Below are positions 8,331 through 56,640 of a stretch of 64,000 bases of DNA, piece by piece (the stretch's first letter is position 1; each line of letters begins with the position of its first letter). The position numbers were made by a program, and so were the translations under genes. The notes beneath the pieces are model-generated. The model saw nothing but the letters and a program-made list of their open reading frames with translations, had not been told where the DNA came from and ran no database searches. Location of the stretch: contig OX359195.1 in the NCBI GenBank assembly GCA_947172415.1, positions 2,728,001 to 2,792,000 on the forward strand, in the 5' to 3' direction. Source of the stretch: Chondrosia reniformis (Eukaryota; Porifera; Demospongiae; Chondrillida; Chondrillidae).

Positions 8331-8334
8331 CACG

Positions 8335-16490: not shown

Positions 16491-16724
16491 TTAATTGTTC
16501 TGATGCAGTCCTGACCACTTCTGTAAGAGTGATGTGATGGTCTTTCCTTTCCTTCCCTGTACACTAACTTTAACCTGCAGAGGAAGTACGTAGGGCATCA
16601 TTCATTTACAAGTAACACTATTGACTACTACTCGGTAGCAGACCTTCTTTGATTTCTTCTTCTTTGGTTCTGAATCACTGTCCAGACTGGGACTGCCTTC
16701 TCTTGACCCCACAGCACCTTCACA
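16491..16724 (-). pseudogene. Duplicated 3' exons of the WW gene, orphaned
   Basis: The two last exons of the WW gene (basic SDSEPKKKKSKK exon and the LLQKWSGLHQNN exon with its stop) are present with few changes, but no upstream exon follows. Instead 17286-18413 holds a kinase fragment on the other strand. This is a partial gene copy from the segmental duplication; expression is unlikely. Confidence 0.75.
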
Positions 16725-16974
16725 GGTCACCTACAGGTGTTACACGTCCATTTCAGTGTAGAGAGACCATAATTTGAAATGTACCCTCGTATTGTGAGAA
16801 ACATGGATCATTTGAGTGTTCATGTTTCAGATACGTACATTGGGACGTTGACACTATTTGTTTTCCCAGCATCCTTAGATTCTAGCCACCTTATATGGGA
16901 GGAGTTCATTGGACACTAAACACAATCCTAATTGACCATTCATTAAAACAAATTAAACAGAGAAAATAAGAGAG

Positions 16975-34346: not shown

Positions 34347-37300
34347 TTACCATGGCTACCAGAAAGATACCATCTAAAGATACTGAAAGATTCATTAAAG
34401 AGACTCTTTATCCAATTCTCAAGAGATGTGACGTGAAACGAGTGTCTGCTGACTTGAGAGCAGCTAATGTCATTTCAGTTGGAGAGTTCCAGAGACTTCA
34501 AGCTTGTCCCCAGTTGGAGGATGCTAACAGGTTCCTGTATAGTCTCTTGGATGGAGACCCTTCTACAAGGAAACTTGGAACTCTGTCTGCAGCACTGAAG
34601 GATGACACTACACATGACGGACATCAAGAACTAGCTCAACTGACTGACCAGTTTCTACAAGGTGAGGATATAGGTGTGGGATATAGGTGTGGGTTTGGTC
34701 ATTTACATATCAAATTACAATCTTTGTTTTGAACCACATTTATTAACCACAGTGTTTTAGTGTTACATATATGAAAAATCTAAGATACCATTTTCCTACA
34801 TCCTATACCTATTCTGTAAAAGAGCCTATTAGGGGAATTAGCCTGAAGAGAGCTTTGGATGAAGATACAGGAGTCTTTTCTTTCCTTCTTTTCCCTTTTT
34901 TTAATCTTCTTCTCCACTGGGTCAGACAGCCGTTTCTGGGAATTCCATCAGTGATCCTAGGAGTCTTTGTCTTTTTCTTTATCTTGATCTTCTCTGAATC
35001 CTTGGCTCTCTATGCTAAATCTAGGGGCCTTATATACACTATTTTGGTGCCAAAAGTTAAATAAGGTGTTAACTAAGAGACATGATGAAATTTAATTTTA
35101 TGAAAGGAATGTAAGTCGAATTAAATTTCATTGATTAATTAAATCTATTAGTAATCTTGCTTGTACAGGTAAAACAGACTCAGCATAACTATAGACACAA
35201 GTAGGATATATTACATACGTCTACCCTTAGGTCTTATAGTAGTAACATTTTTTGGAGGTGGGGTAACAAGACAGTCCTTAAGCATACTAGCTACTTTTTG
35301 CTTATATTTTATTCTAACTAGAGGCTGCCGGGATAGGAAGGTTTTAAAGGTTGATTTTAGCTTAAAGTATTTGTGTAACCCTGCTTAATAAGCCTACATG
35401 AAACCTTTTGGCCTGAAAACTCTCTGGGGTATTAGGAATATTACTATCTAAATGGGGGAAATTTACTATATCAAAGTTAAAGTCCTCTCGCTTATCCGAT
35501 TAACCTCCACTGTCGCCTGTATGCGACAGAAAATACAGCTGCTCGAAACGCTGCTGTCGCATTCATGTGGCAGACTTACCGTTAGAAACTTCAGGCGCCT
35601 CTACCGCTTCATTGTTAAGTGCGATGAACCTGTCAGCAAGGTAACTTAGACCACACTTATGTAAGAGTCTTTTGATACAGTTTTACCTTAGTGTTGTAAT
35701 AGGAAACTACGGAGATATGATAACATCAAATTACCGATGTAATTTCTGATACTTGCGAGTTATCAATGAAAGTAAACAATTATTCGGCTGCTAAATTCGG
35801 ATTTGTAGTGACTACTTCGTCTTTGGAGAGCTTTCTAACTGCTGTCTTGTTCAATTAGATGTTTGTGACGCTTTGGTAAGCTTCCTAATCATTGTTTCGC
35901 TTTAATAGACAGAAATAATTACAACTAATTACAACTAAATATAAATAGGATTGTTATTATATAAATATAGACAAGTGGACCAATATATGTAGGAAAGGTG
36001 ACCTTACTAAAGCAAGAGTGGGTTTTCCGATGATTTTAATTCACCATTAGGGCCCCTTTTCATATATAACAACCACTTATTATTCTAGGCTTTCTTTCTT
36101 CGATATTGCCTCGGCGATGGACTTAAACATATGCCCATTCGTGTCTACTATTATTAGTGCAGTGGCAAAATTGACAAGGTCAGGTACAGTAATTAAAGCG
36201 TATACTGACGTTTCACTTTGGGAGAAGATTACTTATAGTCCATCAATATGTATTTTTCTTATCATGAAAGTATTATGAGCGCTCACCATTTCCGATAATT
36301 GTCGATTTCTTTTGCCTTTTGTCTCTTCAAAAAACGAAAGTTGTCTATACAAAAGTCCTCTCGCTTCAAGACTACAACCGGTTAAAGACACAGGGTTAAA
36401 CATTTCTTCCATGTGTATTTTTCCGGCTTACAGCGGTTACCAGTCACACGCCCTTGCCGGAAGCGGCGGTTATTCGGTTATCATATACTTTAGTGATAAA
36501 TTGATTACTAGTAATGGTTATATCTAAGTCTAAAAAGGGGGATTTCCTAGGGCTGGTATTTGTCTTTTTAAGAATATGTTCTTTAGGGTAAATGTCACTA
36601 ATTGACAGTTCAAAATCCTTGTTGTTAATACATAAAAGGTCATCAATATACCTATGTCAATGATGTATACAATTAATGTATGTACATACATATTATATTT
36701 GATGACACAATTTCTCTCTTCAGATCAGGGAAGAAATCTTGCTATCTCCACCTCTCCTCACAGTGATGTTACTCCTGGTCTTAGTAAAGTAAGTGTATTC
36801 ACATAGCAACATATAATGTATACTAACAATACTTCATATATGGCTTGCAGATTATTAGAGTAAATAGTTCTTTTTATGTATAACTTTAATTGGTAAATAC
36901 ACATTTAAATTCTTCAGAAAATAGAAGCAATAGCTAGTCTTATATAGTATGAATATACCAGTTTTATTTTAAATACAACTTTATTATTCACATGGGAGTT
37001 AAGTTACATGTTCAGTTGGTCATAAAATATAGAGCTATTATATATACTTCCTGAATACTTATGCAAATACATATTCTCCTTGTTCCTAATGTACAGAATG
37101 CTCTGACCAATCTTATAAGGGTGTACCAAAGTCCAGTCATATCAAACCACTGGTCACTGAAGCTAGCTGTAATGGACTTTGTCAAACTCCAACTCATAGA
37201 GTCACCAGAATTGAAAGTGAGAAAAGCTGAACTACAGTGCACACCATCTGTAGTTCTAGCATCAGCTACTGGTCAGTTACATGACATCAAAGGAAAGTCT

Positions 37301-40300
37301 ATGGGCCTTCGGGAGATCTTGGAGTACAAGCCTGTGCAACCTCCAAAGAAATGCATCCTGCTGGAAGGAGAGCCTGGTATAGGCAAGTCCACTCTGACCA
37401 AACAGTTATGCTACAAGTTTGCTGAGGGTACATTTGCCGGTGAATACAAGCTAGTCATTAGAGTAGTACTCCGAGGTCTCCCTTCCGATACCACACTGAG
37501 TGTAGAGGACCTAGTTCGTAGCTGTACCAGTGATGTTAAGGGAAGTCTTGATGAAGAAGATGTGTCCACTTTGAGTCACTATATCACAGCCAACAAGGGA
37601 AAGGACACACTGTTCATCATGGATGGCTATGATGAGTTCCCTGAAGAGCTACAGAAGAGATCTCTGGTTGCAGACATTCTAAGTGGCCAGACCCTCCCCC
37701 AGTCATCCTTCATCATCACATCCCGGCCACGAGCATCAGCCCCTCTACACGACAAGATAGAGAGACGCATTGAAGTGATTGGATTTGGGGAGGAAGAGAT
37801 TGAGCAGTTCATAAGAAAGTACTACGGAGAGGCGTCTGGTTCTGTAGCTGATGCTTTACTAGCAAGGCTGAACTCTACCCTGCCTCGAATCAAAGCCATG
37901 TGCTCCATCCCTCTGATCCTGCTGATGACATGTTATGTCAATGATGTTCTTGATGCCCCTCTCGATACAATAAGTTATCTATTTAAAAGCATCATCTGCC
38001 TCACTGTGAAGCGACACTTTGAGAAGAACAATGTGGAAATGGAAATTGGCAGTTTTGAGGATGTCCTTCAACTCTGCCCCAGTTTGATCAAACTAAGTCA
38101 ACTTGCCTTGGATGGTGTGCTGAAAGATGTCATCATTTTCCACAACCTGAAGCTGTCAGAAGATGATCATTTCGGTCTAATGAACTGCATCTCTTATCGC
38201 AGTGCCTTTGGTGGAGTCACTGGATCGTACCACTTTCTTCACAAATTAGTTCAAGAGTTTCTTGCAGCTTGTGCAGTCAAGCAGTTACCTGCCGAGAAAC
38301 AGAGAAAGTTCTGGAAAGAGAGACTTATTCTTGGGTACAACAAACAAGGAGATTTTGTCCTGTCAGACTCCAACTACGAGATGCCATTCCTTTTCTTCTG
38401 TGGCATTGGGGGACTAGAGAATGATGCTGTGAGAGACCTCTTGTTTGAGCCTCTTGTGTTTTCCAATGATCACAGTTTTGCTATAGGGACCACTTTCCCT
38501 GAAATTGCTACAGCAGTAGCCGAGAGCAGAAATGAAGAGTTGTGTCAAAGGGTCATGGAGTATTGCAATATTGCTCAAATTAACTACAACCTCAGTCGCC
38601 ATCAGCTCGCCAGTTTAGCTTACCTGATGACCATCAGCAGACACATCAAACATATTTCAGTTTTGGATCCACCTGACTCCTTTTATAAGCAAATATCTGG
38701 AAAAGTGACGTATTTGGAAGAAGTCACAATTACAAGTGAGTTGATATTGTAAGTAGATATGTATGAATAAAACACTTTTGCAGACTGTTGAAATGCCATA
38801 TATAGAAGTTATATACAATTTAATAGATCCATTTGATTGCTCCTAATACCTTAAGCTTGTGATTATCTTTTAAGTGTGGATATTCAACTTGACTGGTGAC
38901 ACTTATCACTTGTATATATTTCCTTCTCTAGCTTTGGAGAAACTGCCAGAATCTGTTATACTTCAAGACTTCCTAAAGTTGCAAAGTTCAATAAATAAAC
39001 TGACCTTTCAAGATGGGGTAGGTTTGCAGTTCAACCCTAAGTGTACTTACATGGCTTTAATTGTGTTGTTTTGTAAATGTTTACTAAACTTATTAACAGT
39101 ACATTTATATAAGTGTTTAGTATTGTTTAATGTATACTACTGTTTACATCTGTATAGATGCATAGAACGTTAGTGAGAGGAGATTGCATTTTAGTGATGT
39201 CTGACATTGTTTTAGTTCATTCAAAGAGATTGGAACACCTTGCGACATATTTCAGAAGTACGTAAGTCATGTCAACTGTGTATGTCAATGAAATGTAAAA
39301 TTTGTGTGAATATCATTGAAAGTGCACATCTAAAGAGTCCCATGTGACAGTCACTAGCTAGTGTGTCTACATACTGCAAAAGTCTGAATCACTTGTGTTA
39401 TCATTCACTACACAAGTCATGAGTTGTGAGGTGCTAACTTACTTAAAATGATATCACTAACTACATATATCCTTTCTCGTTGCTATGTATAGGTATGGTG
39501 ATGGTGAAGGCAAGTGTGCTAATGAACTCAGTAGTTTCTTGTCATCAGTTGAAATCTCTTTGTCTGGAGAGTGTCAACTTTACACATGAAGACTTAAATG
39601 TCTTACTAGACAACCTACCAAAGTTGGTTACCATAAAACTGGAGGAATGTGATTATGAAGGTGGTGATATTAATACCAGTGTCATTGTGAGTTGTGAAAT
39701 AGATACAAGTGTATAGAGAACAGTAAAACCTCTACACACAACAGCTAATATTTTAGTTGAGAAATGTGAATCTTTATGGACAGGTATATAGTCTCTTTGG
39801 AAAGGGTCATCTTTCGACTTGGCGAGCTTCTAGAGACACAGTTTTTTCTGATTCTTCTTACTGCCAGACGTTTTGACCCCGGTCTTCTTCAGTGACTGAT
39901 GTTGGTCTTCAAGATGTCTTCATTTATAGGCATCTTTTCCCACCATTTTTGATTACCTCATTGGTGATGTCATCAATGACATCATTTCCGGAGAAGGAGA
40001 AGAGAAGGGAGTATTCATAAAAAAGGTTTTCAAACCACTTTTTTATACAATTACTTGATCCAAGTTCATTCTCATCTGACATGGTTGGATCTTCATGGCT
40101 TCCTTAATTCTTCTTCTGTACCAGTTCTCTTCCCTCTCCACCACTCTAGCTTGGCTCCACTCAATTGGATGACCAGTTTTTAGGGAGTGAACAGCTAAGC
40201 CATTGTTCACATCCCCAATCCTGATGGCATGTTTGTGCTCCACCATCCTGACCTTCAGCTTTCTTCCTGTCTCTCCAGTGTACACTACAGGGTAACTAGA

Positions 40301-43300
40301 AATCCTTATTCTAGGTATATGATCTATTAACCCTTTATGCGCGAGTGACGCGTCAGATAATTAGGTATCTTCAATAGCGAGTGCCGCTTATTTGTGTCAA
40401 AGATACCATGGGTGTTTTGTAGTGCGATTTACAGAGCTACAAAACACTGCGGCAGCCGAAATGTTGGCAATACAAAGACTAAAGATGGTGGTTTATTTGT
40501 ACGCCTTATTCTGCTTGCCACGCTTCACTTGATGGTTTGGTAAACAATTTATTTGAGGTTACGACACTTCTCTAATGTTGTAGGGCTTTGAAAAGATTAC
40601 ATAAAGAAATACCGTTACAAAAGGATAACCAGGTCTCATCTTGACCAAATTTGATTCCGTAGATAGTCACAGAAAACTTCTTACCTGAATGAACTTAGAA
40701 AACATAGCCGTGCTTACCTTCTTCATTAGAAAAGGTAATATCTTGAAAATTAGAGCATCTTAGAAGCCAATAGAGCAACAAAATATGTTTAAAAATCAGC
40801 ATTAAAATTTTACTGTCATAAAGAGTTGTCACATTCCTATCAAGGTGACGAATTTTAATTCCTGCCTTATTGTGTCCTTGTGACAATTAAATATCGCTTC
40901 TGGCGATTATTACGCCCACATAATTATCTCTGTTCCATTCCATAGACATGTGTTCATTCTATCCAGCTATTATAGTGTATCATGTGTGTGACATATATCA
41001 ACCAGTGAATGCAGCTTTATATGGGACAACTCTATATAGCTGTAGTCACTGCATGTGATTGGTTGCTGAGATCCCTAACACTGTGTGCAGTGTTAACCTT
41101 TTAACGACTGCTTTTTTCACTTTCGAGAGGCTGTTAATAACTGCACACCCCTTCTGAGCCAGCACCGGCGAATCAACCCTTAAAGTGTATTTTAAGGTTA
41201 AAACTAAAGTTTAGGTAAAAGCTTACCTTAAAATGACTCTGTTCTGTATTGATTCGGGAAAGTACTTCAGGAACTGACGATACGCAGGCAGAACATGTGC
41301 AAATCGCACACAAAAAGGGGCGTTTTATGGTTTTAAAATAATTTGTTTATATAACGGTGTCTCACAATTAAATGCGTAGGTTGGTCATGCGCAAGGTACG
41401 TGACTTTATCGAAGATTCGTTTTGACGAATAAAATTATTAAAGTACAGACACGTTGTATCTCTTTTGTTTCTTGGGTGATAAGTTTTATTTCGCAACGGA
41501 TGGCTTAAACAATTCGCTGATTGATCAAATCTCCAAATCGACTGTCAAAAGAGGAAACGCATTCAATGGCGTAATAATTACCTCATGACCTCAGTGTGAC
41601 TTCAGCTTGAGCAATAACCTCTTAAATTGTTCTCAAAACATGGTCAGGTAAATGAAGACATAGCCTACCAAACTTTTATGGCTTGTTAATCAAAGGTAAA
41701 ACTAAATTTTCAACTATAATTTAATAGCTCGTACCGTTGCCGACGTGTGCAACAGTTTTCATTTGATTTCTCGTAAGATTCTCTAAAAAGCTGCATATCT
41801 CAGGAACGAAGTAATGTTTCAAAATTATACGTGGTGAAAATTTAGATACTTTTGTGCAAATTCTTTTGAGATTGGTATAATTACTTTACAACACCGCGTT
41901 TTCACTTGAAGCTTTTTTTCATATGCTCGACTAAATCTTTCATTTCTTCCATCATTAAATATATTATATGTACAAACAAGGTATTTTCCAATACTGTAAG
42001 TGTTATTGCATTTATAAAAATGTTGTTTTCAATCTCCACTCTAAGATAGGGGGAGAAAATAGGGGTAACTTAAAAGACTTAGTTTAGGGTGGCCATTTTG
42101 TTTTCGGCCACAATATGCACATGTGCTACCTGCGTAGAATTTGACCAAATACCAACTCGCTTCCCTAGCCAGCCATTTCCGCTTGCGTAATACACAATAA
42201 GTGGCACCTAATACATATGTACAGCTTATACTGCTGATCAAAAAGGAGCTATAGTGACTACTCTTTATATCTTATCTATATATCCAGCAAAAATCGGCGC
42301 TCACTCAGCAACAAAAGGTAACAAATTAAAAAGTGATTAAGTTTTCCTAATCCTATAGTTTACTACGCGAATGTTACTTGTGACAATCGTTCAAATAAAT
42401 GACTTACAAAATCACTTTCATGGTTCTTTAGCTTTTGTAAATCTAGCTCACATTACACTGAAGAAACAATGGCTAAAAGAATGAACACTTCTTTCATTAT
42501 AAGAAAAGTAAATGAAACAGCAGACAGTGATGACAGTGATTGGGCTTAGTCTGAGGATGATCTCTGGGAATCTGCTGAAGTTGGTGAAATTGATACCAAT
42601 ATAGGACCTGTGATATCCAGAGATCACCTGGAAGAAGCTCAAGAAGACGTTCATGAAGGTGAAGAGGTTGTTGAACCTGATGAAGAGGTTATTGAACCCC
42701 AGTCCAGGTGGTGGACACCTTCCAACCCTTTTCAAGTTCAGGCATCAACTCCAGAACAAGCATCTTCACTCCCTACTATACTGGATATCTCTGCAAAACA
42801 CACACCAATTCCTTCTACTTCATCGCAAGGATCCTTTGACCATCCACCATTTACATAATGAAGTCAGGATCACTTTTGAACCTTGATAAAAGCTGTAGCC
42901 CTCTTTCTGTCTTTGAGGCAATATTTGATGCAGCCACATTCCGATCAAACAAACCTCTACAGCCAACAGAGCTACTTGGCCCTACGTGGGAAAATGTTAC
43001 GGTACCAGAGATGAAATCGTTCATTGGGATCCTAATTGCCATGGAAATTCATAGGCTGCCTGCAGTAAATGATTATTGGAGTATGGATCCCCTTCTTGGT
43101 GATCCTGGTATTTTCCAATACTATAAGTGTTATTGTGTTTATAAAAATGTTGTTTTCAATCTCCACTCTAAGATAGGGGGAGAAAATATGGGTAACTTAA
43201 AAGACTTAGTTTAGGGTGGCCATTTTGTTTTCGGCCACAATATGCACATGTGCTACCTGCATAGAATTTGACCAAATACCAACTCGCTTCCCTAGCCAGC

Positions 43301-46300
43301 CATTTCCGCTTGCGTAATACACAATAAGTGGCACCTAATACATATGTACAGCTTATACTGCTGATCAAAAAGGAGCTATAGTGGGATCACAAAGGGCATG
43401 TCTAGGGACCGCTTTAAGAGCATACTCCGATACCTCCACCTGAACGATAATACCAAAATGCCCTTAACCCAATTTCGACAAACTCTATAAGATGAGACCC
43501 TTATTCAATGAACTGAAAGAATGTAGCCAAAAAGCATACTACCCACACCAGGAACTCGTTGTCGATGAAGCTATGGTGCTGTTCAAAGGCCGTTCCAGCA
43601 TTAAACAGTACATGCCGCTGAAACCCGTAAAGCAAGGATACAAGGTGTGGTGTATTTGTGATTCCAGAAATGCGTATGCCTATGATTTTGAGGTATACCT
43701 TGGTGCAATGGGTGGCTCCCCAGAGAGTGGACTAGGTAAAAATGTTGTTCAGATGCTCTGCCGTTCCATCCAAAATAGAAGTCACCATATTTATACGGAC
43801 AACTTTTTCACCAGTCCTTCTCTAGCCTGTTCCCTCCACCAGAAGCAGACATACCTGCTTGTGTAAACCGGAGGGGATTTCCTGAGGCTCTACGTGATTT
43901 GAAGACCCTCAGAAAGACACAGCCAAGGGGGGGAACACAAATCCATACTTGTTAATGATGGCAAAACTGAGTGTCTGGTTTGGATAGACAAACAGTTGCC
44001 ATCATTAACACATTAGTTCGTCCCCCCATGTAATGAGGACAGCAAAAAAAAGGATGGCACTAGGCAGCAGGTTCCTTGCCCAGAAAGCATTAAATGGTAT
44101 AAAACCTTTATGGGTGGGGTTGATCTTTTCGATTTTAGGCGCAAGACCTACTTTTGTAGTAAAAAATCGAAGAAATTGTGACTGAGGATTTTTTACGTTT
44201 TACTAGACCTGGCAGTAGTCAATGCCCACGTTATTTACAAGGAGACAGCCACTAAACAGTTTACCCAGAAGGAATTTATACTGCAGATTGCCAGCCAACT
44301 AATTGCCAGCCGTAACTCCTGCAAAAGACAACTCTGCTTCCATGACCCTGCCTCAGTGACACGTTTAACTGAGCGACACTTCCGGGGGAGACAAAATAGG
44401 AGAGGGCATTGGTGTATTTGTCTCCAACGTAGAAGAACTTACTTTTGCTGCAGTCAGTGTTCGCCTTCAGACCCAATACCCCTTTGTTCGCCTACTAATC
44501 CGTGCTTTAAGCTTTATCATACGCTAGAGCAACTGACAACCAAGAGAAGAAAAGCAAATGCTGACGAATTAAGGCTTCTTCCATCACCGTGAACTGCCGT
44601 GAACATTGTTTACATAGGACGCCCACACGCGTTTTAATGTAAATGATTGCATAGTTATTCTTATTTTATACTTCAGTTTTATGCTAATACACGTAGTAAA
44701 CTGTGTACAAACACAATATTCGTATTGCTTACATCATGCGCTATCGAATAGTATGAAATATATATAAATTCAGCCATTTTAAATTGTCGCCGTCCTTCAC
44801 CACTACTGGTCCGAAAAAGTGTGAACAGTCGTTTAATGGGTTAAATGTGAATTTTATGATATGTCTTAATGTGTATATAGTAATTCTCAATTTAGATATA
44901 TAAGTACTTATATATATAGTTATTCTTGAGTGATCCATCAATGTCTATATACGCCAGTGCATTAGGAGGCATCCCAGTCTGGAAGATGTGACGTTAGATT
45001 GGCAGTGTAGTGTGAACTTGATTAAACTGTTCTTGTTTGGTATCAAAGACAAACTAAACATGAAGAAAGTAAATGTTGAATTTTCCGACTGCTCATGTAA
45101 GTGTGTTGTTATCAAAATATTCAAGTCTATTGATCTCTTATTAATGTTTGTATATATACTGGGAGAATATTGTAGTAAAGTTGTTATAACTTGACAAAGG
45201 GAGTTAATTGCACTAAGCCTGTGCAAAGGCTAAAATGATCAGAAATAATCACTGGAACGTATTACACCATACCAGCCAAGTGATCAAAGTCTGATCTTGG
45301 CTGGGGGACCGAAGTCCTATTAAGTTGGCAACCAATTTACCATCATTGAAGTGTACCACACTGATGAGCCCAAATGAGGGCGAAACAGCTGTCTGTGGTT
45401 CTTTGATTATTTTTTTTTTTTTCCATCTTTGGATGACTGGGAGGCGATCACTGGTTGCCAACTTAATAGGACTTCGGTCCCCCAGCCAAGATCAGACTTC
45501 GGTCACTTGGCTGGTATGGTGTAATACGTTCCAGTGATTATTTCTGATCATTTTAGCCTTTGCACAGGCTTAGTACAATTAACTCCCTTTGTCATTGAGT
45601 GCTCAGTCTCACTTAGACTGTAGCCTCCATCCTCACTTAGAATGAAACCACAAGTGTTTCACTTGTGGTGGATTTATAAGTGAGGGCAGTCATCCAATTT
45701 ACCATCATTGAAGTGTACCACACTGATGAGCCCAAATGAGGGCGAAACAGCTGTCTGTGGTTCTTTGATGAATTTTTTTTTTCCATCTTTGGATGACTGG
45801 GAGGCGATCACTGGTTGCCAACTTAATAGGACTTCGGTCCCCCAGCCAAGATCAGACTTCGGTCACTTGGCTGGTATGGTGTAATACGTTCCAGTGATTA
45901 TTTCTGATCATTTTAGCCTTTGCACAGGCTTAGTGCAATTAACTCCCTTTGTCATTGAGTGCTCAGTCTCACTTAGACTGTAGCCTCCATCCTCACTTAG
46001 AATGAAACCACAAGTGTTTCACTTGTGGTGGATTTATAAGTGAGGGCAGTCATCCAATTTACCATCATTGAAGTGTACCACACTGATGAGCCCAAATGAG
46101 GGCGAAACAGCTGTCTGTGGTTCTTTGATGAATTTTTTTTTTCCATCTTTGGATGACTGGGAGGCGATCACTGGTTGCCAACTTAATAGGACTTCGGTCC
46201 CCCAGCCAAGATCAGACTTCGGTCACTTGGCTGGTATGGTGTAATACGTTCCAGTGATTATTTCTGATCATTTTAGCTTTTGCACAGGCTTAGTGCAATT

Positions 46301-49300
46301 AACTCCCTTTGTCATTGTGAGTGCTCAGTCTCACTTAGACTGTAGCCTCCATCCTCACTTAGAATGAAACCACAAGTGTTTCACTTGTGGTGGATTTATA
46401 AGTGAGGGCAGTCATCCAATTTACCATCATTGAAGTGTACCACACTGATGAGCCCAAATGAGGGCGAAACAGCTGTCTGTGGTTCTTTGATGAATTTTTT
46501 TTCCATCTTTGGATGACTGGGAGGCGATCACTGGTTGCCAACTTAATAGGACTTTGGTCCCCCAGCCAAGATCAGACTTCAGTCACTTGGCTGGTATGGT
46601 GTAATACGTTCCAGTGATTATTTCTGATCTTGTTATAACTTGTTAACTTGTGAATATGAGGTCTAGTCATGATAACCTTGTGGTGATTGTATGTAGTACA
46701 TTTTGTAACTTTTACAGATGATGATTGTGTAGAGTTACTAGCATATGTTGTGAGTTGTATGAAGAAGAGCTCACTAAAAACATTTAGTCTCAGGTGGATG
46801 GAAGGAGTGCCACAATGTTGTGAAGTGTTTGACTGCCTTAGAAGCAGTAAAATAGAAGAGTTTGAGTTTGAACTGAAGTACAGTACTTCATTACCTGTGA
46901 GTTGATGAGAGTATAGAATATTATCTTCTCCCCATTCACCACTCTGGCCCATACACACCTAACACTATATCCCCTCATAGCTGTATAGCCCTTTTATGTG
47001 TATCTGAAATGAGTTCCAAGAGCAGGATCTGTGAAAGGATGTGCTGAAGCTACTGACTAGTATTGCTTCTCAAGTATATGGACATAACTAACGTATCTTT
47101 AGAGGGTTCACTTTGTTACTCCTGTTTAATTAATAATGTGTAGCAGTATATGGCTATCCCATAGGTTGTCCAAAATAATGTTCCTCTACAAACATTATGC
47201 AATAACTGTATTATTTATCAGTGAAAGTGTTCATTTGAGAAGAGAGAAGTGTCTTATGTGGTGCAAATTAGTTCAAAATGGTCAATCCTTATGACCACTC
47301 TTGTCCATTTGATTATTAATGAGTGCTCTGCTGATTCACTGTTCTCACAGATCAATTGATATGTAGAGACTGGAAGTTTTCCATGTAGTTATTCCATCTA
47401 CACAATTTACATCATGTTAAATAATCTTGTTCTGAGTAGAAGACATTATATTGTTATATCCATCTACTCAATTGTAACGTGATACTTTATGTGTGGTGTA
47501 TATAGGAAGGTCTCACTGATTTCGTTGAATGTGGAATTGGGCAGTGCAGGACACTCAGGAGGATCACAATGAGAGCTGGTAGACATCAAACACTGTCCTC
47601 CAGTTTATTGAAGGGAATGAACCAGAATCCTTCATTGGAACAAGTTGAACTGAAAGAATGTAACTTTAAAGGTAGGTGATGTATGAGGTAATGTATTGCC
47701 TATATGGCCTTGAAGACGTTTCATCAAATATGAGGATCATGTACTATATACAATTAGGCAGTGGTCTCCAACACATGATGATATCGCTACATAGAGCCTA
47801 TCCTAGAAATTTTGGATAACTAGAACTTTTGATAAGTGGAAGTTTTATATTTGTCTCAGATTCAACTGTATGTATATAGCTATATATGCACATGCATACT
47901 TGCTTTTTTAAGGCTATACACGTGTGTGTATATACAGTGGAACCTGTATAGAAAGACCATCTGTGAGACCGAACTAAGTGGTCTTAATATCAGGTGGTCT
48001 CAAAATATATGTATACAGTTTGCATGATTTATGTATATATACGGTGGAGCCTCCCATAACGGACCCTCCCACCAGCGGACAACCTCTATATAAAGGACAC
48101 TGGCAATGCACCAATTAAAATTACTGTAGCCCTAGTGTATTAGAAACCTCCCACGAGCGGACGCTTCTTGATTCCGGACAACAGACAGTCAGCATGGCCC
48201 CAATTGAAGATGTCCATTGAAAATGGCCTCTCACAACGGACAAACAAAAAGCCACTCCATCAGTCATTCGTATTGTGTGCAAGCGAAACGACACCTGTCC
48301 TTTTTGCGTATAATTATTAGTGTATTATAAAACTTCATAGAATATTTTTTTTATAAAATTATTAATATAAAACTTGATATTCAGTACTTGATCTATATAG
48401 ATCTAGTCCTTGTTAGACGCACTGACCAATCCTTTTGCTTCCAGTGAGGCTATATACAAGTTCGTTGAGCTTGTCTATATAGGGCTTGGGGCCATAGAGT
48501 GAATACTCACATGGTATCTCCAGTCCATATCCAGTGCCTCTATTTACTTTATCACCAATGACCTTGGCAAATCCAATATTTGTGTCGCGCCTGAAATACA
48601 AGGAGCTAAGTTGAAGGGCACATGTCCCACTATTACGTCTTCTCTCTTAACAGCAACCGCGTTGCTATCTCTGTCATTGGTAGGCTCTCTCTTTAGGATG
48701 AGCTCCTCATTCAGCACTGGTGTCCAAACGTCCATATAAGCATGATATCCACTGATGTAGGAGTTTTTATGGAACACTTGTTGAACTCCAGCACAGAAGT
48801 TCAGTTGCCATTTCAGCTAGAGACAAAGTATATACGTAGCTCCACACGGTATAGCTTACTACAGCTATAGCTACCACTTGGTTCACTGGTTTACATCTGC
48901 TCACATGCAAATCAAACGGCCAAGTGCCAAGGTCTGTAATTAGGCTTGCCACAGCTGTCACAATGTCTGCTGCCAAAGAACCTCAGAGAAGAAATAGTCT
49001 ATCATTAAAGAAGAAAGTAGAAGTCATTCATTTGCACCAAAAGAATCCTTCAACCCCTATGAGAACTCTTGGTGAGAAATTCGAATGCGAGAAAACGCAA
49101 ATTAGCCTACATTTTGAAGCATTCAACAGAGCTACTGTCCCTGTTTCAAAATAATGCTTATGATAGTAGGCATATTACCGTACATCTGAGTATACTGACG
49201 TGAATGAAGCACTCTATAAATGGTTCTCTATTGCCTGCTCCAAAAACATCTTTCCAGGTGGTCCAGAACTGATGGAGAAAGTAAAATAGATTGCTATCAA

Positions 49301-52300
49301 GCTTGGTAAGCCCAATTTCAAGGGATCTAGGGGTTGGCTTGACAAATGGAAAAAGCACTTCAACATCAAGGAATTGAAGATTTGTGGTGAATTTGGCGAT
49401 GTTGAAGGTACAACTGTTGAGTCATTGAAGGAGCGTTAGCCAGAAATAGTCCAAGGCTACAAGAAAGATGACATCTGGAACATGGATGAGACAGGATTGT
49501 TTTGGCGAGCATAGCAGTGCAAAGGAGGAAAAAATGAAACAGCGGCTAGCCATTGCATTTTGTGACAGCATCTGGAAGGAAGGAAAAGCCAATTGTGATA
49601 TGGAAGTCAGAAAACCTCAGATGTCTACACCGATTTGACAAATCACTACTTCCAGTCACATATTTTAGCCAGTCAAAAGCCTGGATGACAGGAAACATAT
49701 TAGAATCCATTCTGTCCAAGCTGAACAGGCAGATGGTCGGCAAAAATCACAGAATTTTGCTTTTAATGGACTATGCAGGTTGTCACCCAGAGGAACTACG
49801 AGCAAAATTTTAAAACATTCGGATTTGTTTTTTGCCTCCTAACACCACCTCTACTCTGCAACCTTTGGACTTGGGTATCATCAATAATTTCAAGATTCAT
49901 TATCGGCAATTTTTGCAATACGTCATCTCAAAAATTGATGAAGTTGACAAAGCTCCTCACGTAGTCAAATCAGTGGATCTGTTGGCGGCCATTAGATGGG
50001 TTGCTTTAACTTGAAAGAGGAAGGCAAAGAAGACAGTGATCATGAAATTGAGGATGACAGCATTGAACAGGAGGTCTTGCCTCTCAGTAAATCATACAAA
50101 GAAATAGAAGACATTGTACTCTTTTTACAGCAGAAAGGAAACACCTGAGAAGCTCTGAGCCTTGGCTCAATGATTGATTCTATCTGCAAATGCAGAAATG
50201 ACTCTAGATCTACAGTTCAAACTACTTTAGACAGATATTTTGGTCAGCATTAGTGTTATAATGATGTTATTATTATATGCAATTATAAGTTATGTAATCT
50301 TTCACTGATTACAAAAATGTAAATTTGATTCTGTTCTATATAATAAAACACTTTTTATCAATGTATATGTACGATCAAAAAGTATGCTGGATAGTAGATG
50401 ACATGTTTTATGCTTTTATACATGTTTGGTATAGATATTTCAGTGCTTAATGTGGCTAGAAATTGCAAATTGATGCGAAACTCCCACCAGAGGACAACCT
50501 CCGAATAATAGGACAAAAGCCCTGCTCCCAAAGTGACCTTTATTCGGATGTTCCAGTGTACTCGTTTCATTTCATTATTTATCATTTGAATAGGAAGCCC
50601 CATCAACTCATTTGGCTGGTCTACCTGGGGGTCCTATACATGTGACCGTCTATGCAAAAAGGGGTATTTTCGCGCTGTAGCAAAATTGTTCAGTAACAGG
50701 CGTTTTAAAAACATCCTGGCAAGATAGTCAAAAGTGTTATTTTCTTTAATATCATAAATATTCGTTACTCTAACCTTTACCAATGTTGCCATCATTATTT
50801 TGGTCCTCTTTGTGCAATAAATCCGATTTTCATAAATAGAAGTTACCATAAATATGCCATCTGTTCAATATACGGAATGGTGAATATCATTATTGTTCCA
50901 CTAGTTTTGATTTGATTTGATTGAGATTACGCAGTCAATGATGTCATCATTGTATACAGAGTTTTACTTAAACAGAAGTTAACTGTTAAAAGCTGTTTTA
51001 CATAATATGTGTTTCATTATATAATGTTCTGTTTTCAAAGTGTCGTAACTTCGGATCCGTAACAGTTATGACACTTCTGTTTGCACCATACATTTGATAG
51101 AACTACAGAAGCCTTTTGAAATGGTATTAAAAATGCAATGTTATATATTATATTAATTTAATGTACCATACCGTATATTCGATTGCTGCTATTATTTTTG
51201 TGCGGCTTCTATTCGAGAGTGGCCATGGTGATTAATCGAGAGTGGCGGCTGATTGAGCAAATATGGTAGATAATCAAGCCATTCTCACCGACAATATTAA
51301 GATAGTAGACTAATAACATCTCTTAGTTTACACCTAATTTTTGAACAATGGTCATTATAAAGAGTGTTAAAATCATCTTTGGGACCTGGAAAAGTGGTCG
51401 CAATAGCAAGGTGGTTGTTATATATGAGTTCTATTCGTATTCTTAATATGGCGTAGTCTATAGTAATTTTCTGCAAATACGTTAGATCACAATCAGGAGC
51501 GTGCACAGATAGTCGATAATTGACGATGGGTAACAATTGGTTGTCTAAGCTAAAGGAAAATTTGCAGTGTGTTAATGTACTGTAATATGATTGGTTCCTT
51601 CAACTGACAGGAAATGGAGCATCTCTAGTGGAACTACTAAGAAAAAGTGGATTAAAGAGTGTTACACTTAGTCACTCCTATAACATCTCACCAAGGGACA
51701 TTGCTAATGCTATTGTATGTCTACGTGACAATACTTCATTGATAGAACTCACTATCTGGACTAACACAAAACAGTCTGAGGTACACTTGACTGCCTATCA
51801 CTATAAAATATTACTTTCCCTTACTTAATAAAGTATATCCAGTCTGCTTATTACAAAGTTTAGGTTTATTTGACTAGCTTGTTCCAGTCTATGGCCTCTG
51901 AGTATTTTAGATTAGGTAATCACTTCATATCGTAATACATGTATTTAATTGTACCGGATAAACTTGTACTGAATATTCAGGATGTCACTGAAGATGTCTT
52001 GACATCAGTTGAACAAGCTGTCAAGAAGAACACTACACTAGAGAGGTTGACAGTAAATAGTGAATGGAGTAAAACAAACTGGAGGAATGTTGCAGAGAGC
52101 ATTCTAAAAGGAGCAACAGCCAATCAGAATCTCAGAGAGTTGGAACTGTGGATGAATAAGGAATACCAAGAATATGCTCCTAAACAGGAAGTGATTGATA
52201 ATGTAAGAAAAGTTAACAAGAAATTGAGACTCACTGTTCAGTTATGTAAGTGAATGTCTTTCATCATCTGTTTGTACATGTACGTGGTAGGTAGTTTGGT

Positions 52301-52414
52301 TAACGGTAGATTTGCTAATTTTAATCAAAATAGTATGTGGACTGTGTTATATTATGTAACTTGTGAATATGTAATTCTTCTCTTTTTGTTCATTCAGCAA
52401 TTGATTACTTATAA
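34347..52414 (+). CDS. NLR-C: CARD-NACHT-LRR innate immune receptor (18 kb, transposon-filled introns)
   Basis: Exons: 34347-34661 (CARD), 36724-36788 (linker), 37097-38735 (NACHT), 38932-39017, 39158-39257, 39493-39686, 44958-45096, 46718-46896, 47506-47671, 51611-51780, 51981-52245, 52398-52414 (TAA). Every junction keeps frame: 1109 residues from ATG 34352 (ACCATGG context), or 1213 with the CARD at 20124. Walker A GEPGIGKST lies at 37366-37392 and Walker B LFIMDGYDEF at about 37610-37640; RPRASAPLHDKIERRIEV follows. LRR exons at 44958, 46718 and 47506 have exactly the lengths of those in NLR-B (139, 179, 166 nt). No premature stop was found, so despite heavy insertion load the gene may be functional. 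Signalling partners and ligand cannot be read from the sequence. Confidence 0.85.
34915..34962 (-). ncRNA. Hammerhead remnant in Naiad B
   Basis: Same position as 24634-24682, but seven bases of stem II (AAGGGTG) are missing between CTGATG and GAATTCCCAGAAAC. The core GAAAC and GGCTGTC remain. Probably inactive. Confidence 0.55.
35496..36477. mobile_element. 982-bp non-autonomous DNA element nested in Naiad B
   Basis: TTAT is duplicated at 35492-35495 and 36478-36481. Removing the segment restores the uninterrupted Naiad A sequence at 27180-27195. Ends CCGATTAACCTCC and the inverse of CCGAATAACCGCC form imperfect inverted repeats of about 14 bp. Open frames inside are short and unrecognised. 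The 4-bp TTAT duplication leaves the superfamily open. Confidence 0.85.
39795..40310 (-). mobile_element. Penelope-like element, 3' fragment with C-terminal GIY-YIG
   Basis: On the minus strand, YTGETGRKLKVRMVEHKHAI-RIGDVNNGLAVHS...NWYRRRIKEAMKIQPC-MNLDQ (40285-40043) is a GIY-YIG domain of the canonical, C-terminal type, distinct from the Naiad copies. Truncated at its 5' side near 40310. Downstream at 39866-39900 is CTGAAGA, GACC/GGTC stem, AAAAC and GTC: a hammerhead core with G-to-A in GAAAC. The paralogous intron in NLR-B lacks this segment. Confidence 0.75.
40311..40945. other. Unassigned insertion next to the Penelope-like fragment
   Basis: Absent from the paralogous NLR-B intron (12815-12890). 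It begins TTAACCCTTTATGCGCGAG, which looks like a piggyBac-type end at a TTAA site, but no matching right end was found. No coding signal. Confidence 0.4.
41980..42256. repeat. 277-bp direct repeat, copy 1 (within piggyBac)
   Basis: Near-identical to 43107-43383 in the same orientation. Both start GGTATTTTCCAATACT and end AGGAGCTATAGTG. This copy lies in the 5' non-coding part of the piggyBac. Confidence 0.9.
42469..44592 (+). pseudogene. piggyBac transposase, PGBD4-like, disrupted
   Basis: ATG at 42469 opens MAKRMNTSFIIRKV with an acidic N-terminus; TAG follows DSDDSDWA. After a frame change near 42855: NLDKSCSPLSVFEAIFDA, WENVTVPEMKSFIGIL, DYWSMDPLLGDPG, interrupted by the 277-bp repeat, then ITKGMSRDRFKSILRYLHLN. 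The three catalytic Asp motifs are present: LVVDEAMVLFKGRSS, HIYTDNFFTSP and MGGVDLFD. The C-terminal zinc-finger region keeps CICLQRR...CCSQC. Several stops and frameshifts; not functional. Confidence 0.88.
43107..43383. repeat. 277-bp direct repeat, copy 2, interrupting the transposase
   Basis: Its removal rejoins GDPG to ITKGMSRDRF in frame, so it is an insertion in the coding region. A GT-AG intron with the right frame could not be drawn. Whether it is a small transposable element or a copied piece of the 5' region is unclear. Confidence 0.85.
45193..45334 (-). repeat. Inverted 5' arm of the retrozyme
   Basis: Reverse complement of 45452-45593 with very few differences. An inverted 5' segment next to a target duplication is what twin priming produces during target-primed reverse transcription. 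Confidence 0.85.
45340..45410 (+). ncRNA. Hammerhead ribozyme, type I, copy 1
   Basis: Stem I CCACA/TGTGG with an outer helix (ATCATTGAA against TTTGAT); core CTGATGAG (45361); stem II GCCC-AAATGA-GGGC; core CGAAAC; short stem III from the palindrome ACAGCTGT; GTC cleavage site after 45393. The minimal stem III suggests that cleavage works best as a dimer. This copy lies between the inverted arms. Confidence 0.9.
45701..45772 (+). ncRNA. Hammerhead ribozyme, type I, copy 2
   Basis: Same sequence as copy 1: CTGATGAG at 45723, stem II GCCC/GGGC, CGAAAC, ACAGCTGT, predicted cleavage after GTC at 45755. Stem I TGTGG/CCACA is complete and the outer helix (TTTGATGA) is fuller than in copy 1. Confidence 0.92.
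46061..46132 (+). ncRNA. Hammerhead ribozyme, type I, copy 3
   Basis: CTGATGAG at 46083, all core and stem bases as in copy 2, predicted cleavage after 46115. The distance from the copy 2 cleavage site is 360 nt. Confidence 0.92.
46423..46494 (+). ncRNA. Hammerhead ribozyme, type I, copy 4
   Basis: CTGATGAG at 46445, identical core, predicted cleavage after 46477. It is followed by a partial unit of 152 nt to the end of the insertion. Confidence 0.92.
47935..48039. mobile_element. Single end of a Tigger-like element
   Basis: TA followed by CAGTGGAACCTGTATAG, then GGTCTTAATATCAGGTGGTC, is a typical pogo/Tigger-type terminus; no partner end was found. It directly precedes the element at 48042. 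Confidence 0.45.
48413..48830 (-). pseudogene. HIRAN-like domain gene, one frameshift
   Basis: Reads FCAGVQQVFHKNSYISGYHA, YMDVWTPVLNEELILKREPT, NDRDSNAVAVKREDVIVGHV, PFNLAP; then, after a single-base frame change near 48607, LYFRRDTNIGFAKVIGDKVN and GTGYGLEIPCEYSLYGPKPY. The pattern GY...W.P...E.L.L.REP.N..DSNAVAV...VGHVP..LAP is that of HIRAN domains. No helicase part is attached. It lies back to back with the transposase of the same element. Confidence 0.6.
48963..50252 (+). pseudogene. Tigger transposase, multiply disrupted
   Basis: ATG at 48963: MSAAKEPQRRNSLSLKKKVE (HTH), then SEYTDVNEALYKWFSIACSK, NFKGSRGWLDKWKKHFNIKE, IWNMDETGLFWRA (first Asp), RILLLMDYAGCHPEE (second Asp), CFLPPNTTSTLQPLDLGIIN. 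Stops follow the HTH, VK, KER and FWRA; frameshifts lie near 49550 and 49812. More decayed than the Tigger at 25008. Confidence 0.8.
50561..51560. other. Intronic sequence of unknown origin
   Basis: Not present in the paralogous introns of NLR-A or NLR-B, so it is probably inserted DNA, but no ends, repeats or proteins could be recognised. Confidence 0.35.
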
Positions 52415-53015
52415 AACAAGCTGTTATTCTTTAAAATTGTTTTTGATTAAACTCACACATAATCAATTTACCTTTTTTGTATGAAACAAAGTTGTTGAAC
52501 ATTTTTTAATCTTACCAGAGACAAGTAAATAAAAAATATTTCCAAACATGATGTTGGATCCGAAGTATATATATAGGAATGATAGTGTTCACCAGTGATT
52601 ATAGTATATACATCTGCATTGACATACATATGGTAATGTGGATCATATATATACAGCACAGATGCAGGTTAAAAGAAACTTGACAATTTCCACGACGGTT
52701 TGTACATGAATCCACAAAATAATCTGCAAACTACTGCACAACTATATATATTTGTGTTTTGCTATAGCAGCATATGAGGAAATTGTCAGTGATGTTTGTA
52801 AACAAATGTATGGTGTTATTAAGGAAGCCAATCTACAATTGCATATGAAGATACATAACATAGAGTTCTCGAACATTTCAATCATTACCTTTTTATATCG
52901 TCAGAATGAATAATATGAAAAGTATTATAAGAGTATAGGTAGACAATAATATATAAACAGGGTGTATATGTAAGCAAACTTAGTCTAAAAAGTGTAAATT
53001 CCTATTATTGTCCTT
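52415..53015. other. Spacer downstream of NLR-C
   Basis: AT-rich; presumably holds the NLR-C 3' untranslated region and polyadenylation site. No coding signal. Confidence 0.4.
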
Positions 53016-53640
53016 TAGGTTCCTTGTTTACTTCTACTACAATCAGTAATACTTTCGATTCTCTAGGTGATCTATATACCTTGAACAGACTGCAGGTGTC
53101 ATCTTTTGCCAATACAGTTTGATGCCTTCTTTTAGCTGAGCAAGATTCTTTGGCTTGTGACGATTACCGAGGAAGGTCTTTTTTAAAAACACTAAACTTT
53201 CTCTATGCTGGACTTTTCCACCATCTCACTCTGTTTTCCTCGAAATAAGCTCAAAAGTAACGGCTTGTATATACTGTATGTTTTGGGTCTTTGTCCAGAT
53301 AAAGTCAATGAGCTGGAGGATACTTCTCTCTAATAAAAGGTAGCAGTGGAGTTGTAAGGATATCTCCGTATATTTCATGGTTGTCATTATCCCATCAAAT
53401 ATAATGATGGAAGTATATAGCTCCAGCCTGTCCTTGATATACCAACCCATACATGAACTTTAGGGGGATGCTTGTGCTTGTATTATAGCTTCCTGGGAGC
53501 CCCTCATTTCCTAAGTATTTCCTCCTGTGCCTGTCTAGTTGAAAGGCCGACTCATCAGTTCTTTCCTTGCACCATTCTATTCGTCTTTCTTTGTTAATAT
53601 CTAGAATTGCTTAGCAATATTGTGCAGTCGTGAAGGTCCA
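53015..53640 (-). mobile_element. Tc1/mariner-like transposase remnant
   Basis: Minus strand: RIEWCKERTDESAFQLDRHR, KFMYGLVYQGQAGAIYF, LDKDPKHTVYTSRYF (the DxDPKHT motif of Tc1/IS630 DDE transposases) and FEENRVRWWKSPA. Stops and frame changes make it a relic. Terminal repeats were not identified. Confidence 0.65.
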
Positions 53641-53984
53641 TATATAGCCCTTGTTATGGTCCTAACAGAGTACACTCTAAATGTCCCACCAAAGTTTTTT
53701 CATAATAGCTCCAACTGTTAGTGTGTTTTGGGGAAAATCAAGAAGAGTATATATAGTATATAGCAGATAGGGCATGTCCAATTGATTAGAGATGAACCCC
53801 AGTGCATCTAATTAAAATAACTTGGTCTCTGTTGTCTTGAAACATTTAGGTATAGAATTTCTGCTTCTAATAAATAGCCCTTGAGTGAATCTTTTATCAA
53901 TAATTATTGTGGCAGGTAATTTTTCAACATGCACCATAGACTCCCCAAGCTATATATAATTATTATAAGTTCAGAAATCCTTAA

Positions 53985-54110
53985 CTTTAGCAGTTACATG
54001 ATAACCATCACCAATCACATCAGACAACTTTCATGATCAGTTCCAAACTGTTCCTTTTTCAGAAAAAGTGACTTACGTATTTGGAAGAAGGTTACGTTCA
54101 CTTGATACAG
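53985..54110 (+). pseudogene. Relic of an NLR NACHT-exon 3' end
   Basis: ATGATAACCATCACCAATCA matches the NLR segment encoding LMTISRHIK (near 11360 and 38625), and GAAAAAGTGACTTACGTATT followed by TGGAAGAAG matches the GKVTYLEEV exon (11790, 38700). Frame is lost and a stop is present. It shows a further NLR once lay, or was copied, downstream of NLR-C. Confidence 0.6.
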
Positions 54111-54249
54111 TAGAACCCTGACATAGACAAATCATAAAATAAAAGCCCTTGGCCTTAATTGTTTAATCAGTTGATAGGGCTACTCCGAGCACCGATGATG
54201 TAATTGTTTCACAGAGATGTTGAATTAATATAAAAAATTTCATTCTATA

Positions 54250-56640
54250 TATATATATATATTATATGATAGTATATGCGGTCAAAATCAGTTGGTATAT
54301 ATAAACATATATTTTTGCAAAGACTATATGCTATATAATACAACTAGTGCAGAAGGTATATTGTATTCTAATTACATGCCCCCCCTTGTCACTGTCAATA
54401 ACCTCAATTATAAGCATCTGACCTCATTATATTTGGTAAGAATCTCATTTCCAAGCTTGATCTGCAGATTGACACCCTCTATTATATATACCCTACACTT
54501 CCTTTACAGAATCATTAGTTGGGATTTCTTCACACTCAATCCCAAACCATTGGCTAAGATCCATCCTGCAAGTTAGTTAATTTGAATGGACCTCCTCCAC
54601 CTGTTTTTAATTTACTTGCTTCGTACATGTAAAGCGCTTTTAAACTTAGACTAGCCTATTCCCTATATGAGAATAAATGACAATTTAGAACTTTCATCTA
54701 CCACAAAAGTTTGCCATATTAGCATGAGCTAGTTCATTTGAAAAAAAAGAAGAAAATGAATTGTTGGCCAACCATTTTATAAATAATCAAAACACGTTTT
54801 GACATTTTAACAGTGTGCTAATTAATAGTACATGAATACGAGGATCTCAACTGTATCAATTCCCTTAGATGCGTTTTGTAATAGCATAAACATTTCCTCT
54901 AACCTTAGAATATTATGGTGCATGGTTGCACATGGCCAATCAAGTCTTTTGTTGTTGATCCCTATACCAATCACCTCTGACTTCTTGTCTATCTATTTCC
55001 CTTCACAACAGTATATATGACAGTCTTTTTCATGATGGCAGGCCAATTAATATTATATACTCTACTCTTTCCTTTCCTCACTTGTAATTATGTAATTTTG
55101 ATAAGAGATCACTTTTTCTGAGAGATATCACTATCTATTCAGCGAACCTCAATTTATAATTACCAGCCTAACTATCATGATGCAAGACTATCAAACTAAA
55201 AGAAGTTTATTCATGTACATATGTATTTGAAATTTGCCATGATCGATAACATTTTTATAATGACTAAATATAACTGTAAAACCTTATTAACTGTTAATAT
55301 TGGGTATACTTACATAGTCTAGTAGATATTGAACTATGCAGTTGACCATCCCAATTTTATAAAGATACTTTTAATTGAATTATTATCCTATATATATGAT
55401 TCATGAAATATTTTAGTGGACAGTATAATCTTGAAACTATATATACAGAACTATAATAGATGGCAATTCAAAGTGCCTTTACTGGTTTCATTTCTACTTC
55501 AAGTTATTACACTTATATGTGTATATACCCTATATGGCAACTGACAGCATTGTGCAATTGGTGGTTTACCAATACAAGATGGGTAATATATCTGCATGAT
55601 ATTACCAATAGGTAATTGTGGTTTTCAATGAACATGCGACATATTATTTTTAAATGAACAGAATAAGATAGCAAGGTGTGCATGTACAAATTGTTTTAGC
55701 CCACTTCCTCGGATCTTTGCCAAAATACACAATTACTCAGCCTTGGATTTTGCATAATACAGTCCTTACATGTACCTTATAGAAGCTGGGGCTTGACAAT
55801 GGCATAACTATGATCTGTGGAACATTTTGAATGAATGCCTTCAACTATATAAATAATTATACACATTACCAAATGAAACACTTGTGATTTCATAGTGTAT
55901 ATAAGGGTGGAGACTATACAGTGACCGTAAATGCCAATTTGAAAGGGTTATAAAGACTGCAAAGCAATGCTATAAAGTAATATTTCTGACATAATTTTTT
56001 ATCCCATTGAATTAATGTTCAAGTGCTGACTCATTCCTTGTTTATGATCATTCATTGTAACAAAACTGGTTTTCAAAAGAAAATATTCTTTTTGATATAC
56101 AATTGACTGCATATAGGTGAAGTCAACTGCAACTTCTTTGAAATATGTGTATAGCTGTTTTCCACAACCTTCACATATAATTCAGCCACCTATATATACA
56201 GTAGCTATCACATTGTATAATATATAAAAGACATTCATGATCAACAACTTACACTATAATTGATAGAAGCTCACTGGACCTACTGTATATAGAGTATATA
56301 GGCAGACCATATAAGCTAGAGTGAGTTAATACTTGAATATGGTCACCCCATCAATTTTAATATAATTTGTGACTCTGAACAATGGCACACAAGGAAGTTT
56401 AAAGAGAGTAAAGATTCATTAAGGAATTATACATTCAAAAAATACTCGCAGTATATAACATTAACAGGCAAAGTTTAGAATAAATGAAGTAAAGAATATA
56501 ACCTTAGTGTTTTACAACATTGATTGGAGGTTAGGAAATTAATGAGTTCTCACTAATGATATACCCAGTTGTGTTTTTCTATATAGAAGCTAGCTGAGCT
56601 TGATCTGCAGTTTGATATTATTGAGATGTATCATATATAC
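54250..56640. other. AT-rich intergenic DNA
   Basis: No domain-bearing frame, RNA gene or clear transposon end was recognised. Short open frames lack support. Confidence 0.4.

What the first reader, a model, noticed from the sequence alone, without database searches (positions are those of the whole stretch)
45193..46629. A complete retrozyme array with four canonical hammerhead ribozymes inside an immune-receptor intron
Seen: four type I hammerhead cores (CTGATGAG, GCCC/GGGC stem II, CGAAAC, GTC) at 362/360/362-nt spacing, bounded by a 12-bp target duplication, with an empty site in the NLR-B paralogue. Known: metazoan retrozymes are tandem hammerhead units that yield small circular RNAs. 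Inference: this locus would produce 360-362-nt RNAs that can circularise. The four copies keep all core bases, which suggests selection or recent insertion.
Basis: partly seen in the sequence, partly recalled or inferred. Interest (0 to 1): 0.92.

Follow-up and report, generated by a model that had tools for sequence, protein, structure and literature searches.

The report
Ribozyme retroelement inserted Penelope-style in sponge
A small self-cutting RNA parasite sits in an intron of a sponge immune-receptor-like gene, and the marks it left on insertion match those of Penelope-like retrotransposons in the same genome, which suggests that they are what copies it into the DNA.

Summary
Four type I hammerheads lie at 45355-46483, spaced 362/360/362 nt, in an insertion with a 13-bp target duplication and an empty site in a paralogue within the window. 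The genome matches the sponge Chondrosia reniformis.

In 34 insertions of this family (from 40 scored places, a lower bound), outward ends fall mostly on two unit positions ~45 nt apart, S (~154) and T (~199). Of the 22 with both ends called, 21 have one S and one T. Penelope-like elements (PLEs) of the same genome end on two sites 36 nt apart, T/S in 9 of 9 examined. This is the published PLE signature. In the papers read, PLE mobilisation of animal retrozymes is only proposed; here it gets genomic support.

Most non-CpG variants are in all copies of an insertion or in one, which fits copying from one RNA circle; two long arrays, and one indel in the window itself, do not. RNA cleavage, circles and activity were not tested. 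It is a new member of a known kind.

The parts
45181..45193 (.). left copy of the 13-bp target duplication TTGTTATAACTTG
   Evidence: single copy in the empty paralogue at 13343-13355
45192..45334 (-). inverted arm: unit positions 57-199, outer end at the T (tail) start site
   Evidence: 98.6% identity
45329..46629 (+). forward arm: about 3.6 units, outer end at the S start site (..TTATTTCTGATC)
45355..45399 (+). hammerhead ribozyme 1 (cut after 45393)
   Evidence: RF00163 34.6 bits
45717..45761 (+). hammerhead ribozyme 2 (cut after 45755)
   Evidence: RF00163 34.6 bits
46077..46121 (+). hammerhead ribozyme 3 (cut after 46115)
   Evidence: RF00163 34.6 bits
46439..46483 (+). hammerhead ribozyme 4 (cut after 46477)
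   Evidence: RF00163 34.6 bits
45756..46115 (+). reference unit (360 nt, from cut to cut)
   Evidence: folds at -134.5 kcal/mol, z -7.27 against 100 shuffles
45910..45954 (+). 'tail' interval between the S site (45909) and the T site (45954) of the reference unit
   Evidence: end positions of the insertions
46630..46642 (.). right copy of the target duplication
45097..46717 (+). host intron (GT..AG) that holds the insertion; ribozymes in sense
   Evidence: open frame across the joined exons
37055..38752 (+). NACHT-domain open frame of the immune-receptor-like gene
   Evidence: Pfam NACHT 93.4 bits
13343..13355 (.). empty target site in the paralogue

Best explanation
The feature is a recent insertion of a type I hammerhead retrozyme, a non-autonomous RNA-borne element with a 360-nt unit, made by the enzyme of a Penelope-like element acting in trans. 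Proposed mechanism: (1) retrozyme RNA is cut by its ribozymes and closed into circles (from the literature; not tested here). (2) A PLE RT/endonuclease cuts both target strands about 12 bp apart. (3) Each cut 3' end primes DNA synthesis inside the retrozyme RNA at one of two fixed start sites, S (~154 nt past the ribozyme cut) and T (~45 nt further), one end using S and the other T. (4) The two cDNAs, which can run several laps, meet head to head at variable points and are joined, leaving an inverted repeat flanked by a ~12-bp target duplication. Steps 2-4 are inferred from insertion structure; the same structure is shown by PLEs of the same genome.
For: Four over-threshold hammerheads and the unit spacing. 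Empty site and 13-bp target duplication. 40 places in the genome with the unit, window included (lower bound), 34 after merging duplicates. Both outward ends callable in 22: 21 are one S and one T, 1 is S/S, 0 are T/T (binomial tail 5.5e-6 under independent 50:50 ends; one of the 21, L082, has its S end set by eye). Target duplication of 8 bp or more in 17 of the 21, against 17 of 300 mismatched flank pairs. PLEs are abundant: 71 matches from 70 scored candidates, many 96-98% identical to the query; two tested carry RVT_1 and GIY-YIG domains. PLE ends fall on two sites 36 nt apart, T/S in 9 of 9 examined insertions, 7 of the 9 with target duplications of 9-12 bp. Published PLE hallmarks match: two adjacent internal RT start sites, both strands cut and extended (PMC11167929); an inverted pLTR and a 31-bp tail optionally on one of the inverted pLTRs (PMC3846280, passages). 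Circle template: of 93 non-CpG non-consensus substitutions, 10 are in all copies of an insertion, 75 in one copy, 8 in some. Six that occur in a single insertion each (three of them in L014, the S/S one; the rest in L090, L098, L100, with two copies each) are in every covering copy of both arms.
Against: No sequence match between the retrozyme unit and five PLE stretches beyond 15-17 bases at E 0.72, so the PLE partner is not identified. One S/S insertion (L014), without an abutting duplication; 12 of 34 insertions lack one or both callable ends. Two long arrays (L012, L025) carry variants in some copies only, which a single circle does not predict without later exchange. In the window itself a TG deletion is in two of three copies; indels were left out of the count. 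Several target duplications lie in satellite or low-complexity DNA (e.g. L075, L083), where they say less. The folded tail intervals are no more stable than shuffles (z -0.27, -0.30, -0.33 and +1.35). In a second hammerhead family one locus (L003) may be T/T. The commonest hammerhead class of the genome (33 matches at 37.1 bits) was not examined.
Confidence: 0.83

Rival explanations
1. A LINE-type (L1-like) twin-priming event: one cDNA starts at the RNA 3' end, the second at a chance internal site, giving a 5' inversion with a target duplication.
For: Inverted arm, target duplication and overlaps of up to 8 bases at the inner junction look like twin priming. 150 RVT_1 matches were scored in the genome.
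Against: No poly(A) at the two outward ends of the window insertion. Both outward ends, not one, sit at fixed internal positions, one of each kind in 21 of 22. That the second priming site in L1 twin priming is variable is recalled, not looked up.
Confidence: 0.08
2. The template is a linear multimeric transcript of a genomic array, not a circle; PLE machinery still does the insertion.
For: In vitro, an anole PLE used unprocessed RNA and did not need ribozyme cleavage (PMC11167929). Arms of up to ~5 laps exist. L012 and L025 are internally mixed, and the window array differs by a TG indel between copies.
Against: Non-CpG substitutions in an insertion are mostly in all copies or in one (85 of 93). 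Exactly one S and one T per insertion is more natural on a template with one site of each.
Confidence: 0.3
3. A satellite DNA array that carries ribozymes and spreads by DNA recombination, with no retrotransposition.
For: Tandem organisation. 13 of 34 copies lie in a 13-bp satellite. Some copies are segmental duplicates (e.g. four places on C1).
Against: Target duplications, an empty site and fixed ends.
Confidence: 0.02

Closest known systems
Metazoan non-LTR retrozymes with type I hammerheads (Cervera and de la Pena 2020, PMC7229834)
   Same: Canonical type I hammerhead with weak stem III, unit within ~170-400 nt (here 360), tandem copies, target duplications longer than 4 bp, no ORF, coexistence with PLEs.
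   Different: Parts 1-4 of 6, which I read, describe tandem repeats and call PLEs a strong candidate mobiliser; they do not describe head-to-head arms, two fixed start sites or one tail per insertion. Its supplement was not open to me. RNA was not examined here.
Penelope-like elements with endonuclease (anole PAc, PMC11167929; Adineta Pen families, PMC3846280)
   Same: Two adjacent internal RT start sites (30-40-bp tail), both strands cut and extended, inverted copies, AT-rich targets, a hammerhead (PAc), target duplications of 8-10 bp in the passages seen.
   Different: The retrozyme has no ORF, a canonical rather than minimal hammerhead, and a different primary sequence around S and T.
Plant LTR retrozymes (PMC4918200, search listing and start of abstract only)
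   Same: Non-autonomous, ribozyme-bearing, RNA-circle biology.
   Different: Type III hammerheads, LTRs, 4-bp duplications, Gypsy machinery proposed (as stated in PMC7229834).

Membership tests
metazoan non-LTR retrozyme | type I hammerhead ribozyme with intact core | tested here: met
   4 of 4 matches over the gathering score
metazoan non-LTR retrozyme | tandem units of 150-450 bp bounded by ribozymes | tested here: met
   362/360/362 nt
metazoan non-LTR retrozyme | dispersed copies, target duplications longer than 4 bp when present | tested here: met
   40 places; target duplication of 8 bp or more in 19 of 34 insertions
metazoan non-LTR retrozyme | expression as linear and circular RNA of unit length | not testable with these tools
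   no RNA data on hand
Penelope-type integration (mechanism, not membership) | two adjacent start sites, one tailed and one untailed end per insertion | tested here: met
   21 of 22 insertions with both ends called, of 34 examined; own-genome PLEs 9 of 9
Penelope-like element (as a member) | ORF with RT and GIY-YIG domains | tested here: not met
   no ORF of 150 aa or more overlaps the insertion (one search lists one ORF in 36000-56000, the NACHT one)

The most novel reading that the evidence does not exclude
Animal retrozymes are parasites of Penelope-like elements. Each insertion is written from a single RNA circle by a PLE enzyme pair that primes both cut strands on that one circle, one at the S site and one at the T site. 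This explains both the head-to-head arrays and the rule of one tail per insertion, in retrozymes and perhaps in PLEs themselves.
Probability: 0.42. Interest if true: 0.75.

Novelty: new member of a known kind. Interest (0 to 1): 0.6.

Why it matters
Which enzyme moves animal retrozymes is open; in the papers read, PLEs are only the favoured candidate. The insertion ends here carry a PLE-type signature that is also present in the PLEs of the same genome. That turns the question into a direct test of PLE protein on retrozyme RNA. The one-S-one-T rule also limits models of how PLEs join two cDNAs into one insertion.

Tried and rejected
Rejected or inconclusive: (a) Three inner ends seemed to lie on the ribozyme cut site (L014, L020, L037). 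With a three-unit query they move to unit positions 353, 349 and 349: an artefact of the linear query. (b) L051 looked like a PLE carrying the retrozyme tail; it shows no PLE frame and reads as an old diverged retrozyme-like copy. (c) Within-array variants shared between insertions were largely CpG sites, a 25-nt deletion between direct repeats, or alignment artefacts. (d) A common hairpin in the tails is no better than shuffles. (e) Shared target choice: 13 of 34 retrozymes lie in the 13-bp satellite, against 0 of 1000 window controls but 46 of 147 distal-flank controls; the satellite is very common (6,216 exact dimers). (f) Other hammerhead loci fetched: in six with a different unit (L001, L003, L004, L006, L007, L008) one is T/S with an 11-bp duplication (L007), one probable T/S (L001), one possible T/T (L003), three unclear or single-orientation. 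L002 and L005, distant relatives of the unit, were not read for ends.

Rows dropped: duplicates merged before counting (four C1 places to one; C6:4363 with C4:3559; C4:4498 with C4:4461; C11:1673 with C11:1701). The variant table used 26 of the 34 insertions; one search used 23 of these (L075, L084, L086 left out as diverged; L082 has one segment), without gaps and unit positions 12-30. In one search the S end of L082 was entered by hand from the 12-nt arm read. PLE ends seen on one side only (L054, L060, L061, L066, L104, L106), the multicopy L070 locus and the interrupted L052 are not in the 9 of 9.
Full report
OBSERVATION. The window holds four type I hammerhead ribozymes, all over the Rfam gathering score, with cut sites at the coordinates given, in an array of 3.6 units of about 360 bp. 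The insertion has a 13-bp target duplication. A paralogous stretch of the same window (13012-14440, 81-84% identical) carries the uninterrupted site with one copy of these 13 bases. It lies in a 1.62-kb intron, 45097-46717, read from splice signals; joining the flanking exons keeps one frame open. A NACHT-domain ORF lies upstream on the same strand. The ribozymes are in sense if, as I infer, this is one gene.

Bases 45192-45334 are the unit in inverted orientation (unit positions 57-199, 98.6% identical). The insertion is two arms, head to head: a 143-nt inverted arm and a ~1.3-kb forward arm that meet with a 6-base overlap.

ORIGIN. The window's genome has 117,379,552 bases in 15 contigs. A search for papers holding 'hammerhead ribozyme', 'porifera' and 'tandem repeat' together found none.

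GENOME-WIDE ENDS. A search with the unit gave 144 matching pieces at 40 places, the window included; only 40 of 1,183 candidates were scored, so this is a lower bound. I mapped the unit on all 40 places (loci; segments) and merged segmental duplicates to 34 insertions. The unit is numbered from the base after the ribozyme cut. Outward ends fall mostly on two places: S, around 154 (141-151 in the ~87%-identical subfamily), and T, around 199 (195 in that subfamily). Of the 34, 22 have both ends called, all head-to-head: 21 are one S and one T, 1 is S/S (L014, no abutting target duplication), 0 are T/T. One of the 21 (L082) has a 12-nt S arm that I read by eye. Independent choice at 50:50 would give 21 or more of 22 with probability 5.5e-6. 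A target duplication of at least 8 bp is present in 17 of these 21 and in 2 of the other 13 insertions; mismatched flank pairs give 17 of 300. Inner ends are variable, with small overlaps or gaps. Arms run from about 12 nt (L082) to about five laps (L012).

OTHER HAMMERHEADS. The Rfam search of the genome (73 candidates scored) lists 65 matches, 51 over the cut-off. By coordinates none is at the 40 places above, so there are further hammerhead families. I looked at 8 of the 65: six with a different unit (one clear T/S, one probable, one possible T/T, three unclear) and two distant relatives whose ends I did not read. The commonest class, 33 matches at 37.1 bits, was not examined. The rule is therefore shown for one family.

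THE PLES OF THE SAME GENOME. A GIY-YIG search (38 matches) led to PLE frames. A protein search with one of them gave 71 matches from 70 scored candidates, many 96-98% identical, others near 73%. Two frames carry RVT_1 and GIY-YIG over the Pfam cut-offs. A minimal hammerhead-like motif lies upstream of the start codon; this is my reading, and Rfam models did not report it in 11 PLE-candidate loci. PLE insertions end either at ..CCAAAGATA (S) or 36 nt further at ..CCTTATTCTATTA (T). I fetched both ends of six head-to-head pairs (selection told in Tried and rejected) and had three more in hand. All 9 are one T and one S, and 7 of 9 have target duplications of 9-12 bp.

LITERATURE. Frangieh et al. 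2024 (PMC11167929; parts 1-3 of 4 read): a purified anole PLE starts RT at two adjacent internal sites, the interval is the genomic 'tail', both strands are cut and extended, and the hammerhead is not needed for insertion in vitro. Arkhipova et al. 2013 (PMC3846280, passages): the typical PLE insertion has an inverted pLTR, a target duplication, and a 31-bp tail optionally on one of the inverted pLTRs. Cervera and de la Pena 2020 (PMC7229834; parts 1-4 of 6 read): metazoan retrozymes, with PLEs as a strong candidate for moving them. A review repeats that LINEs or PLEs must move them (PMC11722881, passages); another models circles copied into multimers (PMC7761336, passages). Passages of PMC8490949 (schistosome hammerhead satellites) and PMC6431247 gave no such link. 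My searches, judged by their listings apart from the papers named, showed no paper that ties retrozyme ends to PLE start sites.

TEMPLATE. Among 23 insertions with aligned copies, non-CpG non-consensus substitutions split into 10 in all copies, 75 in exactly one, and 8 in some copies. Six, each found in one insertion only, are in every covering copy of both arms (three in L014, one each in L090, L098, L100). That is what one monomeric RNA, copied lap after lap from both primers, would leave, with single-copy variants as later changes. Against it: the 8 in-between variants, all in L012 and L025; and, outside that count, a TG deletion in two of the window's three copies. Three of the six shared variants come from the one S/S insertion. 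Of 46 arms in 23 insertions, 34 cross the ribozyme cut site at least once (from lengths), so the template was circular or uncut there.

MECHANISM AND STATUS OF EACH STEP. Shown from sequence: the insertion event, head-to-head arms, two fixed start sites, one of each per insertion, and the same rule in local PLEs. Inferred: PLE protein acting in trans, both primers on one circle. Taken from the literature: RNA cleavage and circularisation. Not shown: which PLE family is the partner, since the sequences around S and T do not match and a common hairpin is not supported.

JUDGEMENT. The element is a new member of a known kind. Its interest lies in the genomic support for PLE mobilisation of retrozymes and in the one-S-one-T rule, both open to direct testing.

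Noticed in passing
window 1195-2805: 54-bp tandem repeat, 31 copies, 85% matches; not examined.
   Followed up: no
window 79-16912 and 34400-52498: Several duplicated blocks, mostly 77-90% identical, e.g. 10040-11426 with 37301-38687, the latter inside the NACHT ORF: a local cluster of NLR-like paralogues.
   Followed up: partly
L001, L003, L004, L006, L007, L008: Other hammerhead elements of the genome with a different unit; L007 shows a T/S head-to-head insertion with an 11-bp duplication, L003 may be T/T.
   Followed up: partly
genome G000, 33 places listed: A class of hammerheads that all score 37.1 bits, the commonest in the list; its elements were not fetched.
   Followed up: no
genome G000, e.g. 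C1:3.8-4.3 Mb: A 13-bp satellite (TAGTACATACAAC)n with 6,216 exact dimers; by eye the 9 PLE insertions examined lie in it, and 13 of 34 retrozymes do.
   Followed up: partly
L021 and L096, unit positions 75-99: The same 25-nt deletion between two direct repeats in one copy of each of two insertions, probably recurrent slippage.
   Followed up: no
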